A stretch of DNA of 10,783 nucleotides, from contig CP070709.1 in the NCBI GenBank assembly GCA_020350305.1, forward strand, positions 793,913-804,695, in the 5' to 3' direction. The DNA is from Candidatus Bathyarchaeota archaeon (GTDB lineage: Archaea; Thermoproteota; Bathyarchaeia; Bathyarchaeales; Bathyarchaeaceae). The first letter of the stretch is position 1. Every line of letters begins with the position of its first letter. Below the pieces are notes generated by a model. That model searched no databases, was not told where the DNA came from, and saw nothing but the letters and a program-made list of their open reading frames with translations. Of this stretch, positions 1,249 to 10,489 are shown in pieces. The position numbers and the translations under genes were made by a program.

Positions 1249-1683
1249 CTAGCCCTTCCAGGTCTTGAAGATCGGGATGAACTCTGTATCAACCACATCG
1301 GGGATTCCCCTAGCCTTCAGGATAACTGACCGCAACCTGCTTAAGTTTTTGGCCGCTATCTTCACGATGAGGTCCTCTGATCCGTGGACCTCATGGACCT
1401 CGCTGACCCTGGCGATCTCGCAAAACTGCCTAGAGACGTCCTTCACGGCACCGGGCTTCACATTCACGAGTATGAAGCCGCGGGTCCTTTTCTCTAGGGC
1501 GGCGTCGTCGACCTCTATGGTGAACCTCTTTATGACACCCATCTCCGTGAGGCGCTTCACTCGGTTGTAGACCGTGGCGTCGGAGATGTCCAGAGCCTTG
1601 CCGATGCCCACGAAGGTCATTCGAGCGTTATCCCTGAGATACCGTATGATTTCCCGGTCGATTTCATCCAATTTCTCACTCAA
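1249..1683 (-). CDS. Lrp/AsnC-family transcriptional regulator
   Basis: This 144-residue protein has the full family layout: an N-terminal winged helix-turn-helix (about residues 5-55, with LDEIDREIIRYLRDNARMT and then SDATVYNRVKRLTEMGVI) and a C-terminal RAM/AsnC ligand-sensing domain (about 65-140, including EVHEVHGSEDLIVKI). Such proteins form dimers or octamers that bind DNA in response to amino acids or related metabolites and often repress their own gene. The start is TTG at 1683; a GAGTGAT ribosome-site-like stretch lies five bases before it, and no better start is visible. The gene looks visibly richer in G+C, mostly at third codon positions, than the genes around it. It is transcribed away from the small zinc-ribbon cluster, with which it shares an upstream region. 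The ligand and targets are unknown. Confidence 0.93.
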   Translation of the reverse strand: MSEKLDEIDREIIRYLRDNARMTFVGIGKALDISDATVYNRVKRLTEMGVIKRFTIEVDDAALEKRTRGFILVNVKPGAVKDVSRQFCEIARVSEVHEVHGSEDLIVKIAAKNLSRLRSVILKARGIPDVVDTEFIPIFKTWKG

Positions 1684-1786: not shown

Positions 1787-1794
1787 CTATATAG
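1787..1794 (+). promoter_or_regulatory. TATA box for the small zinc-ribbon/lysine-rich cluster
   Basis: CTATATAG is centred about 27 bases before the GTG at 1818, which fits a leaderless start on that codon. A second AT-rich box (GCTTATTAAG, near 1760-1769) could give a longer leader that includes the GGAGGG at 1805-1810. Confidence 0.5.
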
Positions 1795-1817
1795 GCAAAG
1801 CATGGGAGGGAAGAGTT

Positions 1818-1889
1818 GTGATTGAAGAAGAGGAAGAATGGGAAGAGGAAGACGACGACAAAGATGAAGATTGGGGAGCCTGGGAATAG
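1818..1889 (+). CDS. 23-residue strongly acidic peptide
   Basis: GTG at 1818 follows a GGAGGG ribosome site (1805-1810) at good spacing and also sits at the predicted transcription start. The peptide (MIEEEEEWEEEDDD, then KDEDWGAWE) has 14 acidic residues and three tryptophans and ends in TAG. No family is recognised. It leads a cluster whose other members are lysine-rich or zinc-binding, so a charge-neutralising or DNA-mimic role could be imagined, but that is speculation. The same DNA read one base later gives a lysine-rich frame (TTG 1822), so only one of the two may be real; position relative to promoter and ribosome site favours the acidic frame. Confidence 0.4.
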   Translation: MIEEEEEWEEEDDDKDEDWGAWE

Positions 1890-2034
1890 ACCGCTGAAGA
1901 AGAAGAGGAGTTACATAGTCACAATTCGCCGCGAAAGAAAAAGGCGAACGCAGAATGACAAATCGGCGGAGGTGACCAACATGGGCAAGAAGAAGGGAAA
2001 GAAAAAATCTAAGAAGAAGGGCGAGGAGCGGTAA
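1864..2034 (+). CDS. lysine/arginine-rich small protein, start uncertain (1822, 1864 or 1981)
   Basis: The frame ends in TAA at 2032-2034. The best-supported start is ATG 1981, which follows a perfect GGAGGTGA at 1968-1975 with five bases of spacing and gives a 17-residue peptide, MGKKKGKKKSKKKGEER. The frame is open further upstream, to ATG 1864 (57 residues) and TTG 1822 (70 residues), and the upstream part (LKKKRSYIVTIRRERKRR) has protein-like composition, so a longer product or two nested products are possible. About half the residues are Lys or Arg, suggesting nucleic-acid binding. A ribosome-site-like GAGGAG near its end, followed by a zinc-domain frame without a start codon, suggests the two frames may be expressed as one protein. 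Confidence 0.5.
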   Translation: MKIGEPGNRPLKKKRSYIVTIRRERKRRTQNDKSAEVTNMGKKKGKKKSKKKGEER

Positions 2035-2035
2035 G

Positions 2036-2326
2036 CTAGCACCCGGCTTCTGCCGGATCTGCGGAAGGATCGTTGGGGGGCTTTCCGGGTTAACTGTTTG
2101 GTGGTGCCCACGCTGCTGCAAACTTCTCTGCAAGGACTGTTGCCCAGTTGGCTCAGCAACCAAGAAATCGGTGTGCCCCGAATGTGGAACCGAGGTCCAG
2201 CCTATGAGGCGGAAAAAGCCTTCCAAATACCCTGTTTTTATTCCAAAACTCAAACTCGTTGAGAAAAAGGTGATTATTGGTGCCAAAATGTCCGATCTGT
2301 GGAAAAGAAGCAGAAACGCCAGTTAA
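2036..2326 (+). CDS. eight-cysteine cross-brace-type zinc protein with no canonical start codon
   Basis: Counting from CTA 2036 the frame gives 96 residues. The cysteines run C6-x2-C9-x14-C24-x2-C27-x4-C32-x2-C35-x11-C47-x2-C50, the spacing expected of a two-zinc cross-brace (FYVE/RING/treble-clef type), followed by a basic tail of about 46 residues (MRRKKPSKYP...). No ATG, GTG or TTG precedes the first cysteine in this frame. Possible explanations are a +1 shift at the CGG TAA G end of the preceding lysine-rich gene (AGGAG lies just upstream at 2024-2028), initiation at CTA 2036 placed about seven bases after that same GAGGAG, or a base error in the assembly. The cysteine pattern makes a coding frame very likely; how it is started is open. 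It overlaps the next gene by 47 bases. No enzyme function can be read. Confidence 0.6.
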   Translation, partial: LAPGFCRICGRIVGGLSGLTVWWCPRCCKLLCKDCCPVGSATKKSVCPECGTEVQPMRRKKPSKYPVFIPKLKLVEKKVIIGAKMSDLWKRSRNAS

Positions 2327-2408
2327 GGAGTGGAATCTACGCAAGACACGCATCAAGCAGTATGAGTGCTGTGGAAAGAAGTTCCGTGAGTACGTAAAGA
2401 TGATCTAG
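2280..2408 (+). CDS. 42-residue single zinc-ribbon protein
   Basis: GTG at 2280 follows AGGTGAT (2268-2274) with five bases of spacing. The product starts MPKCPICGKEAETPVKEW and ends YECCGKKFREYVKMI. C4-x2-C7 is a normal first zinc knuckle; the second side is an adjacent pair, C30-C31, before GKKF, where C-x2-C would be usual, so one ligand is moved or missing. Small ribbons of this shape are common among archaeal nucleic-acid-binding proteins. The gene begins inside the end of the preceding zinc gene, suggesting translational coupling. Confidence 0.65.
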   Translation: MPKCPICGKEAETPVKEWNLRKTRIKQYECCGKKFREYVKMI

Positions 2409-2429
2409 GAGTCGAGGAGGTGCTGCCTC

Positions 2430-2579
2430 ATGGGTCTGCTTGACTGGTTTAGAAGGAGAAGAAAAGAGAAGATAGGTGAAGAGAAGTGGTCGAGCGCACA
2501 TCAGAAGTTGCAAACCGAAATCGAAAAGCGTGTGAAAAAAGAACCGAAGAAGAGGAAAAGGAAGAAGGAGCGTGCATAG
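2430..2579 (+). CDS. 49-residue basic small protein
   Basis: ATG 2430 follows GAGGAGGTG (2414-2422) with seven bases of spacing. The product begins MGLLDWFRRRRKEKIGEEKW and ends in a lysine/arginine block (KKEPKKRKRKKERA). The first seven residues form a short hydrophobic, possibly amphipathic, segment before the basic part. No family is recognised. It lies tightly between two zinc-ribbon genes in the same direction, and its TAG stop is next to the following ATG. Confidence 0.6.
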   Translation: MGLLDWFRRRRKEKIGEEKWSSAHQKLQTEIEKRVKKEPKKRKRKKERA

Positions 2580-2580
2580 A

Positions 2581-2925
2581 ATGGACTTTTGCCCAAAATG
2601 TGGAGCAAGGTTGACTCTAACTAAGAAGCAGGTGAGTAAGGCAGTTCTTCTGCTTTCATGCCAAAGGTGTGGCTACAAAAAGCGAGCAGTTGGTCTGATG
2701 CCCGCTATCCTCAAAAGCATAGATCATCCGCCCAAAGAGCGCATAGCAGTAATAGGGAAAGAGGAACAGAAACTGCGGACATCCCCCACAGCCAGAATAC
2801 AATGTTGTAGATGTGGAAATAAGCTGGCCTATACATGGATGGTTCAGACCAGAAAGTTGGAAGAATCCTCAACACAGTTTTTCAGATGCACAAAATGCAA
2901 TTACACTTTCCGCGAGAACAGCTAA
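2581..2925 (+). CDS. TFS/TFIIS-like protein with two zinc ribbons and altered hairpin tip
   Basis: The 114-residue product has an N-terminal ribbon (MDFCPKCGARL, second knuckle CQRCGY, residues about 4-40), a linker, and a C-terminal ribbon (CCRCG at about 79, CTKC at about 104) containing QTRKLEESSTQFF. This is the layout of archaeal TFS, which inserts its C-terminal hairpin into RNA polymerase and stimulates cleavage of backtracked RNA. The usual tip reads QTR-SADEP; here it reads QTR-KLEES, so the catalytic Asp-Glu pair is Glu-Glu and the proline is lost. It is probably a TFS paralogue; activity may be altered. ATG 2581 is preferred because GGAG (2567-2570) lies ten bases before it; the upstream GTG at 2572 would be too close. 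It sits inside a cluster of tiny basic and zinc-binding genes. Confidence 0.85.
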   Translation: MDFCPKCGARLTLTKKQVSKAVLLLSCQRCGYKKRAVGLMPAILKSIDHPPKERIAVIGKEEQKLRTSPTARIQCCRCGNKLAYTWMVQTRKLEESSTQFFRCTKCNYTFRENS

Positions 2926-2952
2926 CTGCACCTATGATTGGAGGTAAAATAA

Positions 2953-3084
2953 TTGGCCACCAAGAAGGGAAAGTGCCAAAAAGCAGAAAGGGCGAAGAGA
3001 CACACAGAGCACGTGAGAAGAAAGAAACAAGCAAAAAAGGAAAGCAAGAAGAAGCTTCAAGCACCCCAAAAGAGAAAAAGGTAG
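2953..3084 (+). CDS. 43-residue lysine-rich protein
   Basis: TTG 2953 follows a perfect GGAGGT (2940-2945) with seven bases of spacing; ATG 2935, in another frame, has no such support. The product begins MATKKGKCQKAERAKRH and continues as a Lys/Arg/Gln-rich chain ending in KRKR, with few hydrophobic residues, so it is probably disordered or helical on nucleic acid. No family is recognised. It follows the TFS-like gene by 27 bases and resembles the other basic peptides of this cluster in composition. Confidence 0.55.
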   Translation: MATKKGKCQKAERAKRHTEHVRRKKQAKKESKKKLQAPQKRKR

Positions 3085-3130
3085 AGCGTACGGAGTGACA
3101 TTCGACACATGTCTGATTGGTGGTTCTGGA

Positions 3131-3505
3131 ATGCAAGAAAACGAAAATGTTGAAATCAGCATTCGATCTATAAAAAAAATTGTTATCCTCAATTGCACAA
3201 GGTTTCAAATTGATGAGTTCTTTAAAAGGGTAGAAATGATGGCAATATCTGGAGATCAAGTAACGCTAAACTGGGCGGAAGGAATAGTGTTTCTTGCCTT
3301 GCCATATCAAGCCCATAATGACATAATAGTAGAACAAGCATTGAAAGGCACGAGATATTGGAGTGGAGTTATCTTTTCACAAATGCCCAAATATCAATCT
3401 ATCAAGAAAATCGGTGCACGAGAAATCCCAATAATCAATCAAACTGTTGACCCCCAACTAAGACAAGTCGCAAAAAAGCTAAGAAAAAGATTGGAATCCG
3501 AATGA
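3131..3505 (+). CDS. hypothetical 124-residue protein
   Basis: ATG 3131 is chosen because GGTGGT (3119-3124) precedes it by six bases; GTG 3095 would add 12 residues. The protein is soluble in character, mixed alpha/beta, with no signal peptide, no membrane segment and no zinc motif. A hydrophobic core run (EGIVFLALPYQ, about residues 60-70) and a basic C-terminal helix (RQVAKKLRKRLESE) are visible. I do not recognise a family. It is the last gene of the zinc-ribbon/lysine-rich cluster, 46 bases after the previous stop, and may be regulated with it. Confidence 0.7.
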   Translation: MQENENVEISIRSIKKIVILNCTRFQIDEFFKRVEMMAISGDQVTLNWAEGIVFLALPYQAHNDIIVEQALKGTRYWSGVIFSQMPKYQSIKKIGAREIPIINQTVDPQLRQVAKKLRKRLESE

Positions 3506-5904: not shown

Positions 5905-6057
5905 GTGATTGAATGCCCAAAAAAAGAAAAAACAAAGATGAAGAAATCTGAAAAAAACTGCGTATATGTCTGTGATGTCTGTGGTTGCGAGGTAGTGTGT
6001 ACAACACCTGGTAGAGGTCACCTCATCTGCTGCGATGAAATAATGTATTGCTGCTAG
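5905..6057 (+). CDS. desulforedoxin-like small Cys-rich protein (50 residues)
   Basis: From GTG 5905 the product has 50 residues; ATG 5938 would give 39. After a lysine-rich start it reads CVYVCDVCGCEVV, then PGRGHLICCDEIMYCC. The C-x2-C-G, a Gly-x-Gly turn, L-x-C-C and a nearby Met match the Fe(Cys)4 site of desulforedoxin and of the N-terminal domain of desulfoferrodoxin (compare C-x2-CG ... LxCCGexM). Four further cysteines, including a C-terminal CC, are unusual and could bind another metal or carry sulfane sulfur. The position, 66 bases before a DsrE gene in the same direction, suggests a redox or sulfur-carrier role in the sulfur module; that is inference. No catalytic superoxide reductase domain follows. 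Confidence 0.6.
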   Translation: MIECPKKEKTKMKKSEKNCVYVCDVCGCEVVCTTPGRGHLICCDEIMYCC

Positions 6058-6679: not shown

Positions 6680-8047
6680 ATGATTCTTGAAAAGGTTAAG
6701 GCAGAAGGTATAGCTCACATTTCATATTTTGTCGGTTCTGAAAATGAAGCTGTAGTCATAGATCCGCGACGTGACTGTCGAGTTTACATGGACATTGCTC
6801 AGCGAGAAGAAATGAAAATCAGATATATCATTGAAACTCATCGCAATGAGGATTATGTTATCGGTTCTCTGGAGTTGGCGCGTTTTGTTGGGGCAAAAGT
6901 CTACCATGGCTCTGGTTTGGCCTTTGAATATGGAGAAACGCTGAAAGACGGCCAGGAGCTTGGCTTTGGAAAAATGAAGATTACTGCCATTCACACGCCA
7001 GGGCACACAGATGAAAGCACATCTTACGCCCTGACTGATCTCAACGCAGGGGGTGAACCAATGACAGTTTTTACAGGGGATACCCTCTTTGTAGGCGATG
7101 TCGGACGTACCGATCTCTACGGACCCAAGGAAGCCCCTCGGATGGCAGAGAATCTTTACAACAGCATTTTCGATAAGCTCCTCCCCTTGGGAGATGCAGT
7201 TATGATTCACCCTGCTCATGGTGCGGGATCAGTCTGCGGTGGAGCTATCAGCCAAAGAGAAGAAAGCACATTAGGTTTAGAGAGAATTCTAAATCCTATC
7301 TTGCAAAGAAACAAGGAAGAGTTCATCAAGTTCAAGGTATCTGAACATCTTGAAAGGCCTCCATACTTTCGCAAGATGGAGCAATACAACCTGAATGGCC
7401 CGCCACTCTTAGGGCATATTCCGAATCCTGACCCACTTTCGCCAGAGGAACTCCAAGAACAGATGAAGTTTGGAGCAGTGGTTGTGGACACTCGTACACC
7501 TCCGGCTTTTGGCGGAGCCCACATCGGAGGTTCATATAGCATACGGTTGAACAGACTTCCAATGTATGCGGGGTGGGTGTTGCCTTATGACAAGCCGATC
7601 ATATTGGTGTTAGAAGACAGCGGATATCTAGAGATGGCGGTTCGTTTCCTCATTAGATTAGGGTATGATCAGATAGTTGGCTATCTGCGTGATGGGATAG
7701 ATGCTTGGTATAAAGAAGCCTTGCCGACGGAGCTGTTGGGCCTCCTTACAGTGCAGGAGCTGAAAAAACGACTAGAAAGAGGCGACAATTTGGTCGTGCT
7801 TGACGTGAGGGAGAAGAAAAAATGGAACGAAGGACACATCAAAGGAGCCCGCTACGTTTACGCTGGTCACGTTGAACGACATCTAGACAGTATACCTGCA
7901 GATTGCCCAATTGTTGTAGTCTGCAACACAGGGAACCACGCCAGCCTTGTAGCAAGCATTCTGCGCCGAGAAGGATATAGAGAAGTATATAACTTGTTGG
8001 GGGGTATGGCTGCTTGGCAAGACGCCGAATACAAGTTAGTCAAATAG
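6680..8047 (+). CDS. metallo-beta-lactamase fold / double rhodanese fusion (persulfide dioxygenase-like)
   Basis: The protein has 455 residues. Residues 1-200 form a metallo-beta-lactamase domain resembling persulfide dioxygenase (ETHE1). The usual THxHADH is replaced by THRNEDY (His54, Asn56, Asp58, Tyr59), with HTPGHT (His109), FTGD (Asp134) and HPAH (His180). In ETHE1 the single iron is held by the first His of the motif and the later His and Asp, and all three equivalents are present, so a mononuclear iron site is still possible. Residues about 250-350 are a rhodanese domain without its cysteine (ILVLEDSGYLE at the loop); residues about 353-455 are a rhodanese with an active-type loop CNTGNHA (Cys415). 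The predicted role is oxidation of glutathione-like or protein persulfide to sulfite, with sulfur transfer by the last domain. AGAGGTAT precedes ATG 6680. An AT-rich box (about 6635-6642) may be its promoter. Confidence 0.88.
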   Translation: MILEKVKAEGIAHISYFVGSENEAVVIDPRRDCRVYMDIAQREEMKIRYIIETHRNEDYVIGSLELARFVGAKVYHGSGLAFEYGETLKDGQELGFGKMKITAIHTPGHTDESTSYALTDLNAGGEPMTVFTGDTLFVGDVGRTDLYGPKEAPRMAENLYNSIFDKLLPLGDAVMIHPAHGAGSVCGGAISQREESTLGLERILNPILQRNKEEFIKFKVSEHLERPPYFRKMEQYNLNGPPLLGHIPNPDPLSPEELQEQMKFGAVVVDTRTPPAFGGAHIGGSYSIRLNRLPMYAGWVLPYDKPIILVLEDSGYLEMAVRFLIRLGYDQIVGYLRDGIDAWYKEALPTELLGLLTVQELKKRLERGDNLVVLDVREKKKWNEGHIKGARYVYAGHVERHLDSIPADCPIVVVCNTGNHASLVASILRREGYREVYNLLGGMAAWQDAEYKLVK

Positions 8048-8154
8048 TTCGTCCAAAGAACATCCCCTTCAGCCAATCAAAGCATCGATACACTCAGAGC
8101 CCGATTTCCTGCAGAGAAAACACTTATCTGCACTCAGAATCTCAAGTATAAAAC

Positions 8155-8616
8155 ATGTTTCCATTAGGTATCGTTCCATACGTAGTAGGCGGTATACTCA
8201 TAGGCGTCGGAGTCGGTTGCATATATGTCACAACGGGACTCCACGCAACGCAAAGTAGTTTCTTCAGTACAACACTTTCTTTCTTCTCAAAGAGACCACA
8301 TTTTCAACAGAAACAGTATCTCAATTCGAGAGGCTGGCGACTTACATTCGCAGTGGGGGTGATCTTGGGAGCTTTCATTTACGCGATTATTTTGTCTCCC
8401 GAAGGCTTCTTCACGACTTCAGTACAATGGTGGCGACTTGCATTGGGCGGTTTCCTTGTAGGCTTTGGCACCCGGCTTTCAAAAGGATGTACTTCCGGAC
8501 ATGGCATAAGTGGATTGGGTTCGCTCTCTACAACTTCTTTGTATGCGGTCATAACGTTTCTGAGTGTGGGAATACTGACAGCGATGATTGTTCAAGCTCT
8601 GGGGGTGATTCCGTAA
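8155..8616 (+). CDS. YeeE/YedE-family (TsuA-like) transporter, first half
   Basis: This 153-residue membrane protein has about four membrane segments (around 5-27, 63-81, 93-110 and 127-148). It carries Cys22 in VGVGCIYVTTG and the family signature GTRLSKGCTSGHG with Cys112. YeeE/YedE proteins include TsuA, the thiosulfate importer, in which conserved cysteines line the substrate path. In many bacteria the protein is a single chain with two related halves; here the halves are separate genes two bases apart. No ribosome site precedes ATG 8155; ACTTATCTG (8122-8130) lies about 29 bases upstream and could give a leaderless transcript. Its position after the persulfide enzyme supports import of thiosulfate or another sulfur compound. 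Confidence 0.85.
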   Translation: MFPLGIVPYVVGGILIGVGVGCIYVTTGLHATQSSFFSTTLSFFSKRPHFQQKQYLNSRGWRLTFAVGVILGAFIYAIILSPEGFFTTSVQWWRLALGGFLVGFGTRLSKGCTSGHGISGLGSLSTTSLYAVITFLSVGILTAMIVQALGVIP

Positions 8617-8618
8617 GA

Positions 8619-9017
8619 ATGAGGCATCTCTTTGTGTTCATCGGAGGTCTGCTGTTCGGTTTTGGATTAGCATTCGGTGGCATGGCAAAACAAGAAATAG
8701 TTCTAAGCTTTCTGCAACTCAAAGATCTGGGCTTGCTTATACTGCTCGGCGCATCTGCCTTCCTGACAGCGATTACCATTAACCTTGTGCCAAAGATCAT
8801 GAATAGACCATTCCTTGGAGGAGAATTCAAGAAAAGGAAGCGTACGCTGAGCAAGAGAACAATCATAGGCGCAATAATTTTCGGTGTAGGCTGGGGCATC
8901 TCCGGTCAGTGCCCAGGATCAGCTTGGGCAAGCTTAGGAGTAGGCAACATCCCTGTTCTAATCGGAATCGCTTCGATGTTCATAGGCGCCTACATGATGG
9001 GAAGGTTCTTCACTTAG
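8619..9017 (+). CDS. YeeE/YedE-family (TsuA-like) transporter, second half
   Basis: From ATG 8619 this is a 132-residue protein with about four membrane segments (around 3-22, 38-57, 82-100 and 111-128). It contains FGLAFGGMA near the N-terminus and GWGISGQCPGSAWAS with Cys98, the usual second-half signature. GGGTGAT (8603-8609), within the end of the first-half gene, is a plausible ribosome site and indicates coupled translation. Both halves should assemble into one channel; neither alone has the full set of cysteines. A longer open frame extends upstream to 8427, but it merely overlaps the first gene in another frame. Confidence 0.85.
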   Translation: MRHLFVFIGGLLFGFGLAFGGMAKQEIVLSFLQLKDLGLLILLGASAFLTAITINLVPKIMNRPFLGGEFKKRKRTLSKRTIIGAIIFGVGWGISGQCPGSAWASLGVGNIPVLIGIASMFIGAYMMGRFFT

Positions 9018-9220: not shown

Positions 9221-10489
9221 TTGAAAACTAGTTTGATCACCCTGATAAAATCGGAAGATTGGTGGGCTTGCTGGTTAGGTATTTCCCTTTTTGCGATCAG
9301 TCTTCTCGGCATCATTGATACAGTGCCTAGGCCAACAATATGGTTCATAAATCCTTTCGACGCCTTATCCATAGATGCGCTACTTTCCTATCTTATGTTG
9401 ATGGTTCTTCTCGCAATCCTTTTTTCAATAGGTATCAGATTTATGGCGGGAAAGCCCTCATCTTATCTTCCCGCATTTGTACTATTTTCGATATTGGGAT
9501 TGGTTGCGCAGGTCATATCGAAACAATATTTTGTAGGTACCTATGGTTTGGAATATGTTCTTTGGGCGTTGGTAATTGGTTTAGTGATTAGTAATACGGT
9601 GGGTCTACCTGCTTTTCTGAAGCCCGCGATACGAACAGAGTTGTATATAAAAACAGGCTTGGTTTTGTTGGGTGCGGAAATATTGTTTTCTCGCATTTTA
9701 AATCTGGGAATTCAAGGATTAATTCTTGCTTGGGGAGTAACACCAATTGTGTTATTCTTGATGTATAGATATGGTACGTCGGTTTTGAGATTGGACAAAA
9801 CGCTTACTATCCTTATAGCTGCTGCAACCTCTGTTTGTGGTGTTTCCGCCGCGATTGCTGTTGCAGCAGCAACCAAAGCCAAGAAGGAACTCTTGACGCT
9901 CACGATATCTATCTCGTTGATATCTACCGTAATACTGTTGGTTGGTCTACCCGCTGTTGTGAAGATGGTGGGGATTGACTATATCGTGGGTGGCGCTTGG
10001 ATCGGAGGAACGGTTGATTCGACAGGTGCTGTGGTTGCTGCGGGTGAATTGCTAAATCAACAAGCAATGGAAGTGGCAACTGTAATAAAACTGATACAAA
10101 ACGTTTTGATTGGAGTAATCGCTTTTTTCGTCGCTTTGTTTTGGGCAACTACTATCGAGCGGCGTTCAAACGATAAACCAAGCCTAGTTGAAGTCTGGTA
10201 CAGGTTTCCGAAGTTCATTATAGCCTTTGCTTTTCTATCATTAATCTCATCTTCTGTAATGATGCCAATAATGGGCGAGGCGTTGTCAGCTAATACTCTA
10301 AAAGTAACTGGTGGCATACGCACATTTCTTTTTGCAATCGCTTTTTTGAGCATAGGACTGGAATCAGATTTTAAGATTTTGAAAAAGCAAATTTTAGGCG
10401 GTAAACCAGTACGCTTGTATATTGCAGGGCAATCACTAAATATCATTCTAACTTTGATCTTTGCATGGTTATTGTTTGGCCTATTATGA
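9221..10489 (+). CDS. YeiH-family putative sulfate/anion exporter
   Basis: The 422-residue protein has about ten to eleven hydrophobic segments. Family blocks (PF03601) are visible: NTVGLPAFLKPAIRTELYIK, TGLVLLGAEILFSRIL, a SVCGVSAAIAVAAATKAKKE block at the middle, and WIGGTVDSTGAVVAAGELL, followed by TVIKLIQNVLIG. Typical YeiH proteins are nearer 340 residues; the extra length is mostly an N-terminal region of two to three hydrophobic segments. The family name putative sulfate exporter is by annotation rather than strong biochemistry. In this place, after thiosulfate uptake and persulfide oxidation genes, export of sulfite or sulfate is a sensible reading. The start is TTG 9221, the first possible in the frame; TTG 9233 is an alternative, and neither has a clear ribosome site. 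An AT-rich box (AATATATGG, 9196-9204) lies just upstream. Confidence 0.82.
   Translation: MKTSLITLIKSEDWWACWLGISLFAISLLGIIDTVPRPTIWFINPFDALSIDALLSYLMLMVLLAILFSIGIRFMAGKPSSYLPAFVLFSILGLVAQVISKQYFVGTYGLEYVLWALVIGLVISNTVGLPAFLKPAIRTELYIKTGLVLLGAEILFSRILNLGIQGLILAWGVTPIVLFLMYRYGTSVLRLDKTLTILIAAATSVCGVSAAIAVAAATKAKKELLTLTISISLISTVILLVGLPAVVKMVGIDYIVGGAWIGGTVDSTGAVVAAGELLNQQAMEVATVIKLIQNVLIGVIAFFVALFWATTIERRSNDKPSLVEVWYRFPKFIIAFAFLSLISSSVMMPIMGEALSANTLKVTGGIRTFLFAIAFLSIGLESDFKILKKQILGGKPVRLYIAGQSLNIILTLIFAWLLFGLL

What the first reader, a model, noticed from the sequence alone, without database searches (positions are those of the whole stretch)
1787..3505. Compact operon of zinc-binding and charged microproteins around a TFS-like factor
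At least seven very small genes lie in one direction: an acidic 23-mer, lysine-rich peptides of 17 to 57, 49 and 43 residues, a cross-brace zinc protein, a 42-residue ribbon and a TFS-like protein, then an unknown 124-residue protein. Several carry near-perfect ribosome sites (1968-1975, 2268-2274, 2414-2422, 2940-2945), which chance frames would not. Basic peptides alternate with zinc ribbons. Together with the TFS-like gene this suggests a set of accessory factors acting on RNA polymerase, nucleic acid or ribosomes. I know of no described system with this make-up; that it is one system is inference.
Basis: partly seen in the sequence, partly recalled or inferred. Interest (0 to 1): 0.75.

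Follow-up and report, generated by a model that had tools for sequence, protein, structure and literature searches.

The report
Archaeal microprotein operon with TFS paralogue
A run of tiny acidic, lysine-rich and zinc-binding proteins next to an altered RNA-polymerase helper gene is conserved in several uncultured bathyarchaea, so it is a genuine gene set whose job is still untested.

Summary
The window is bathyarchaeal. The small genes at 1818-3505 recur in relatives, and most differ mainly at third codon positions. The "TFS-like" gene belongs to a supported paralogue clade, here called TFS2 (15 of 92 rows, 98/95). Its catalytic tip reads E-E in 11 rows, E-Q in 2, D-Q in 1; one keeps D-E. 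All 6 TFS2 loci whose DNA I could read have a 17-25 aa acidic Trp peptide and a 15-19 aa Lys-rich peptide upstream. Of 69 other TFS loci, none has the acidic peptide and 1 a basic one. A search of 201 genomes for the Lys-rich peptide gave 6 matches (2 already known); all 6 have an acidic peptide upstream. Four of six lie divergent from an Lrp-type gene with a shared promoter element. A similar 5' cassette elsewhere precedes Cpn60/proteasome or CdvA-like genes. Corrections: the 57-mer is not supported; the cross-brace gene lacks a standard start and resembles ribosomal aS34; the ribbon and 124-aa protein are wider families. Best reading: an Lrp-controlled module adjusting RNA polymerase, perhaps ribosomes. 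Mechanism is inferred.

The parts
1249..1683 (-). Lrp/AsnC-type transcription regulator, divergent from the operon
   Evidence: HTH_24, HTH_AsnC-type and AsnC_trans_reg above Pfam cut-offs; 72-74% identical neighbours in L001, L012 (100 residues each, the rest masked) and L146
1752..1795 (.). shared divergent promoter/operator-like element (TTATTAAG 1762-1769; CTCTTAAG 1773-1780; TATATAG 1788-1794)
   Evidence: TTATTAAG present in all 8 aligned loci, of both cargo kinds; binding not tested
1818..1889 (+). acidic, Trp-containing 23-aa microprotein (GTG start)
   Evidence: 74% identical in L001, differences 2,1,8 by codon position; upstream of TFS2 in 6 of 6 readable loci
1981..2034 (+). Lys-rich 17-aa microprotein
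   Evidence: 71% identical in L001, differences 2,3,9; pattern search gives 6 matches in 5 of 201 genomes, each with an acidic peptide upstream
1976..2326 (+). open frame with a cysteine-rich zinc domain (2048-2215), aS34-like; start codon unresolved (CTA at 2036 aligns with the ATG/GTG starts of stand-alone relatives)
2277..2408 (+). rib43: CxxC...CC zinc-ribbon microprotein (TTG start)
   Evidence: family across Bathyarchaeia; differences 15,11,22 against L001 and 6,5,11 against L146
2430..2579 (+). p49: MGLLDWFRRRR-type basic microprotein
   Evidence: 98 clusters of 41-69 aa in the protein search; 5 of 256 genomes
2581..2925 (+). TFS2: transcription factor S paralogue, tip LEESSTQ
   Evidence: two Cys4 ribbons; TFS2 clade of 15 among 92 rows, 98/95
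2953..3084 (+). p43: Lys-rich 43-aa protein (TTG start)
   Evidence: same family after TFS2 in L001, L012, L146; 9 of 256 genomes
3131..3505 (+). u124: 124-aa protein of unknown family
   Evidence: 56% identical in L001; matches in 192 of 256 genomes; AF2 pLDDT 90.9, no convincing PDB match; no Pfam match at E 0.1 for 16 of 16 members

Best explanation
The region is an operon under a divergent Lrp-type regulator. Its conserved core is acidic peptide - Lys-rich peptide - TFS2, usually with p43; zinc and basic microproteins and u124 are accessory. SHOWN: coding and selection signatures, co-occurrence, paralogue clade, altered tip, shared promoter element. INFERRED: under a metabolic or stress signal sensed by the Lrp protein, the operon is switched on. 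TFS2 enters the RNA polymerase secondary channel like TFS but, with E-E or E-Q in place of D-E at the tip, gives weaker or no transcript cleavage and so competes with or replaces the housekeeping TFS. The Lys-rich proteins bind nucleic acid or rRNA; the acidic Trp peptide is their soluble partner or competes with nucleic acid on polymerase; the aS34-like zinc protein acts at the small ribosomal subunit.
For: TFS2 clade 98/95 with 15 rows; tip letters differ from D-E in 14 of 15 (P0029 keeps D-E). Acidic + Lys-rich pair upstream in 6 of 6 readable TFS2 loci; other TFS loci 0 of 69 acidic, 1 of 69 basic (L023), 0 both. G001, G002 and G004 also hold an ordinary TFS elsewhere, so TFS2 is an extra copy there. 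Divergent Lrp and promoter element. Third-position excess in most small frames. Precedent that a tip change turns a TFS paralogue into a polymerase inhibitor: TFS4 (PMC5715097, passages read). aS34 likeness.
Against: No expression, binding or activity data. The tip is still acidic, unlike the three lysines of TFS4, so cleavage may be retained; the window, L012, L146 and L147 have E-E, and a carboxylate is lost only in L001, L250 and P0027. In G052 (L250) only one TFS match passed 1e-40, and it is TFS2, so it may not be an extra copy there. Loci behind the nine metagenome rows of the clade could not be read. A similar 5' cassette precedes other cargo. EEEEW-ending peptides occur without TFS2. 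p49, zinc, rib43 and u124 are absent from several TFS2 loci. The codon tests rest on 17-123 codons; where pS was above about 0.74 the script prints dN/dS 0.00 through saturation.
Confidence: 0.42

Rival explanations
1. Translated leader: the acidic and Lys-rich frames act in cis as attenuator peptides that set translation of whatever gene follows (TFS2, Cpn60, CdvA-like).
For: The cassette stays at the 5' end while cargo changes; poly-Glu and poly-Lys stretches are apt to slow ribosomes (recalled).
Against: 24 of 30 fetched EEEEW loci have a ribosome-site-led frame of 14-35 aa, and in the 15 neighbourhoods shown no Lys-rich frame follows and no constant downstream gene is evident; amino-acid identity and Trp are kept.
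Confidence: 0.2
2. Mainly a ribosome set: zinc protein, rib43 and Lys-rich peptides are ribosome-bound accessory proteins made under stress, and TFS2 is only co-regulated.
Against: The zinc model is weak (pLDDT 73), Foldseek's own E for aS34 was 0.23, and cysteine-rich profiles cross-match (eL43 E 1.6e-5, ZZ, RING); zinc and rib43 were not found in L012, L147 or L250, where acidic, Lys-rich and TFS2 remain.
Confidence: 0.2
3. TFS2 is a host-encoded polymerase brake against viruses, like Sulfolobus TFS4, and the peptides tune it.
For: Paralogue with altered tip; TFS4 precedent induced by virus.
Against: No lysine tip and no gap in the hairpin; the regulator is an ordinary Lrp type; no defence library was searched.
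Confidence: 0.08
4. Toxin-antitoxin-like pair: the Lys-rich peptide is toxic and the acidic peptide neutralises it.
For: Two tiny adjacent genes of opposite charge, found together at 6 of 6 Lys-peptide matches.
Against: Part of an operon with different cargo; EEEEW acidic peptides in 15 shown neighbourhoods have no Lys-rich partner downstream.
Confidence: 0.07
5. Chance frames in purine-rich DNA.
For: Glu and Lys codons overlap in shifted frames of GAA/AAG runs, so some frames are open by composition (the 57-mer is an example).
Against: Conservation, third-position excess, ribosome sites, and EEEEW-stop in 110 of 256 genomes against 4 of 256 for the pattern read backwards.
Confidence: 0.03

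Closest known systems
Archaeal TFS / eukaryotic TFIIS, RPB9, RPA12, RPC10
   Same: Two Cys4 zinc ribbons, TFIIS ribbon Pfam E 5.3e-12; best-scoring solved chain 1qyp
   Different: Tip E-E/E-Q in most rows instead of D-E; extra copy inside a microprotein operon
Sulfolobus TFS4 (PMC5715097, passages read)
   Same: TFS paralogue with changed catalytic tip
   Different: TFS4 has a shortened hairpin with lysines; TFS2 keeps length and acidity
Ribosomal protein aS34 of Saccharolobus (PMC11698992, passages read)
   Same: Profile and predicted-fold likeness of the zinc domain
   Different: The paper reports aS34 only in Thermoprotei orders; here Bathyarchaeia, with no proof of ribosome binding
Haloferax zinc-finger micro-proteins (PMC6562870, abstract and outline read; PMC11241148 and PMC10716476, search listing only)
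   Same: Archaeal one-domain zinc proteins under 70 aa
   Different: rib43 has one CPxCG and an adjacent CC pair; here in an Lrp-divergent cassette
Lrp/AsnC (LysM-like) divergent regulators
   Same: HTH plus ligand-binding domain; 103 bits to the LysM model, below its cut-off of 180
   Different: Presumed target is a microprotein operon

Membership tests
TFS/TFIIS transcript cleavage factor | two Cys4 zinc ribbons | tested here: met
   eight cysteines invariant; PF01096 45.8 bits over cut-off 21; TFS_arch 64.2 against 64.75, just below
TFS/TFIIS transcript cleavage factor | catalytic Asp-Glu at the C-ribbon tip | tested here: not met
   window E-E; of 15 clade rows 11 E-E, 2 E-Q, 1 D-Q, 1 D-E
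TFS/TFIIS transcript cleavage factor | stimulates RNA cleavage by polymerase | not testable with these tools
   needs biochemistry
TFS4 polymerase inhibitor | shortened hairpin with two or three lysines at the tip | tested here: not met
   LEESSTQ, no gap in the hairpin; definition
aS34 ribosomal protein | RING-like two-zinc fold and sequence likeness | tested here: inconclusive
aS34 ribosomal protein | bound to the 30S head | not testable with these tools
   needs a structure or sedimentation experiment
Haloferax-type C(P)XCG zinc micro-protein (for rib43) | under 70 aa with two C(P)XCG motifs | tested here: not met
   rib43 has CPICG and YECCG; among 13 aligned only L163 has CxxC twice
Lrp/AsnC regulator | HTH plus AsnC ligand-binding domain | tested here: met
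   PF13412, PF13404, PF01037 above cut-offs

The most novel reading that the evidence does not exclude
Bathyarchaeia carry an undescribed kind of regulatory cassette: a translated pair of oppositely charged microproteins (acidic Trp peptide plus Lys-rich peptide) under a divergent Lrp protein, which acts in trans on polymerase or ribosomes and is plugged in front of different cargo (TFS paralogue; zinc and basic microproteins; Cpn60/proteasome; CdvA-like), some genes of which start at CUG, AUA or CUA.
Probability: 0.35. Interest if true: 0.85.

Novelty: new variant of a known kind. Interest (0 to 1): 0.7.

Why it matters
Genes of 15-25 codons are easily skipped by gene finders, yet here a pair of them accompanies a polymerase-factor paralogue in every locus I could read. 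It gives a concrete test case for charged microproteins in archaeal transcription and translation control, adds a TFS paralogue lineage in Bathyarchaeia, and suggests an aS34-like protein outside the lineages where aS34 was reported.

Full report
WHAT THE WINDOW IS. No whole genome is held. The TFS protein at 2581-2925 is 59-84% identical to the 120 proteins listed (of 760 found); those whose name gives an organism are Bathyarchaeota/Bathyarchaeia, except one labelled Acidobacteriota (P0069). So the window is taken as bathyarchaeal. The window's own p49 is listed from a contig of 1,281,183 bases (P0143).

CHECK OF THE FRAMES. Relative L001 (bin695) keeps the order divergent Lrp, acidic peptide, 17-mer, zinc ORF, ribbon, TFS, 43-mer, 124-aa protein; p49 is missing there. 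L146 (G004, bin28) keeps Lrp, acidic, Lys-rich, zinc, ribbon and p49, then a 235-aa CdvA-like protein, an 86-aa protein, TFS and p43; no u124 match. Differences by codon position, window against L001: acidic 2,1,8; 17-mer 2,3,9; zinc 16,14,26; ribbon 15,11,22; TFS 24,22,51; 43-mer 14,12,22; u124 42,26,70. Against L146: zinc 14,9,23; ribbon 6,5,11; p49 13,12,16; TFS 18,20,38; Lys-rich 9,7,6. Against L012: acidic 4,4,10; TFS 26,23,53; 43-mer 10,9,14. So the excess is clear for most, weak for p49 and absent for the Lys-rich peptide against L146. The stretch 1890-1980 shows no periodicity (12,14,13), so longer forms of the Lys-rich peptide are not supported.

THE TFS IS A PARALOGUE. In a tree of 92 TFS rows (116 columns, few for so many rows) the window, L001, L012, L146, L147, L250 and nine metagenome proteins form one side of a branch with support 98/95 (14 rows at 100/97 before L250 was added). 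L250 has a long end branch, so its place is less sure. In one search, 77 of 91 rows carry D-E before SSTQ, P0029 among them. Of the 15 TFS2 rows 11 carry E-E, L001 and L250 E-Q, P0027 D-Q and P0029 D-E. G001, G002 and G004 also hold ordinary copies; for G052 (L250) only the TFS2 passed 1e-40. Sulfolobus TFS4 became a polymerase inhibitor through a lysine tip (PMC5715097, passages read).

THE CHARGED PAIR. With fixed criteria (ribosome site of 4 or more bases, 14-32 aa, at least 60% D/E, or at least 45% K/R with 30% K, within 1.9 kb upstream) 5 of 5 TFS2 loci have both; of 69 other TFS loci with enough upstream sequence 0 have the acidic one, 1 (L023) the basic one, 0 both. A search for M-x-KKKGKK over 201 genomes gave 6 matches in 5 genomes. 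Two (G001, G190:C25) were already known TFS2 loci. The four new ones (L250, L251, L253, L255) each have an acidic frame that starts 92-108 bases upstream and ends 30-49 bases upstream, and L250 has a TFS2 downstream that falls in the clade. That makes 6 of 6 readable TFS2 loci. L253 and L255 have no scored ribosome site before the Lys-rich peptide. p43 follows by profile in the window, L001, L012 and L146; L250 has a Lys-rich 42-mer at the same place that the p43 profile search did not report for G052; none was seen in L147.

WIDER OCCURRENCE. Glu4-Trp-stop occurs in 110 of 256 class genomes against 4 of 256 for the pattern read backwards. Of 30 loci fetched, 24 have a ribosome-site-led frame of 14-35 aa and 6 do not. 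Among 22 similar equal-length pairs the differences are 48, 32, 127 by codon position (pairs share sequences, so not independent). In the 15 neighbourhoods shown no Lys-rich frame follows; L213 and L226 show only overlapping shifted frames. The window's acidic peptide ends in WE, not EEEEW, so kinship with these is likely but not proved. rib43: matches in 119 of 256 genomes at 1e-3, with 33 matches below 1e-12. p49: 5 of 256 genomes and 98 protein clusters. Zinc profile: 53 of 256 genomes at 1e-4, but mostly longer frames; strong matches (1.6e-16 or better) in 6 genomes, four of them (G048, G063, G065, G185) with a short copy outside the cassette. p43: 9 of 256. u124: 192 of 256, so it is not specific to the operon.

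OTHER CARGO. In L151 (G143) and L152 (G066) a cassette acidic - basic - rib43 - p49, divergent from an Lrp gene 48-49% identical to the window's, runs directly into a Cpn60 chaperonin, followed in L151 by a proteasome alpha gene (L152's chaperonin by likeness only, and its ribbon has lost the first cysteine). L149 has the same cassette without a recognised partner gene, and L165 has it with a cut ribbon and no p49. In L146 p49 is followed by the CdvA-like gene (PF18822, E 7.6e-10). The promoter region aligns across eight loci of both kinds, TTATTAAG being common to all. It may be a TATA element, an operator, or both.

MECHANISM. Shown: real genes, co-occurrence, paralogue clade, altered tip, shared promoter. 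Inferred: Lrp-controlled induction; TFS2 as an altered secondary-channel factor; nucleic-acid or rRNA binding by Lys-rich proteins; the acidic peptide as partner or competitor; ribosome action of the zinc protein. The strongest rival is that acidic and Lys-rich frames are cis-acting leader peptides, since cargo varies; acidic peptides that stand apart from such cargo speak against it.

VERDICT. A real, partly modular microprotein operon with a TFS paralogue; the function is open. I saw no description of it in the search listings named under Tried and rejected, which cover open-licence papers only and were partly capped.

Noticed in passing
L211-L240 (30 loci): Acidic peptides ending EEEEW, often with GGAGGTGA-like sites; the pattern occurs in 110 of 256 Bathyarchaeia genomes.
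   Followed up: partly
L250 near 1614; L146 3787 (minus); window 2036: Apparent non-AUG starts: ATA for TFS2, CTG for p43, CTA for the zinc gene in window and L146.
   Followed up: partly
L151 6012-8733; L152: p49 abuts the start of a Cpn60 chaperonin gene, then (L151) proteasome alpha, in a similar Lrp-divergent cassette.
   Followed up: partly
L146 4457-5161 (minus): 235-aa protein with CdvA-like coiled coil (PF18822, E 7.6e-10) between p49 and TFS2.
   Followed up: partly
window 3131-3505: u124 family in 192 of 256 genomes, no Pfam match, confident model without a convincing PDB match.
   Followed up: partly
L154 5049-5168 (G060): rib43 copy with an in-frame TAA and ACG where ATG is expected: probably decayed.
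   Followed up: no
window 5905-6057: 50-aa protein matching the desulfoferrodoxin N-terminal domain (23.5 bits, cut-off 23).
   Followed up: no
window 6680-9017 and 9221-10489: Looks from memory like a beta-lactamase-fold/rhodanese protein, two YeeE/YedE-like membrane proteins and a YeiH-like membrane protein; not searched.
   Followed up: no
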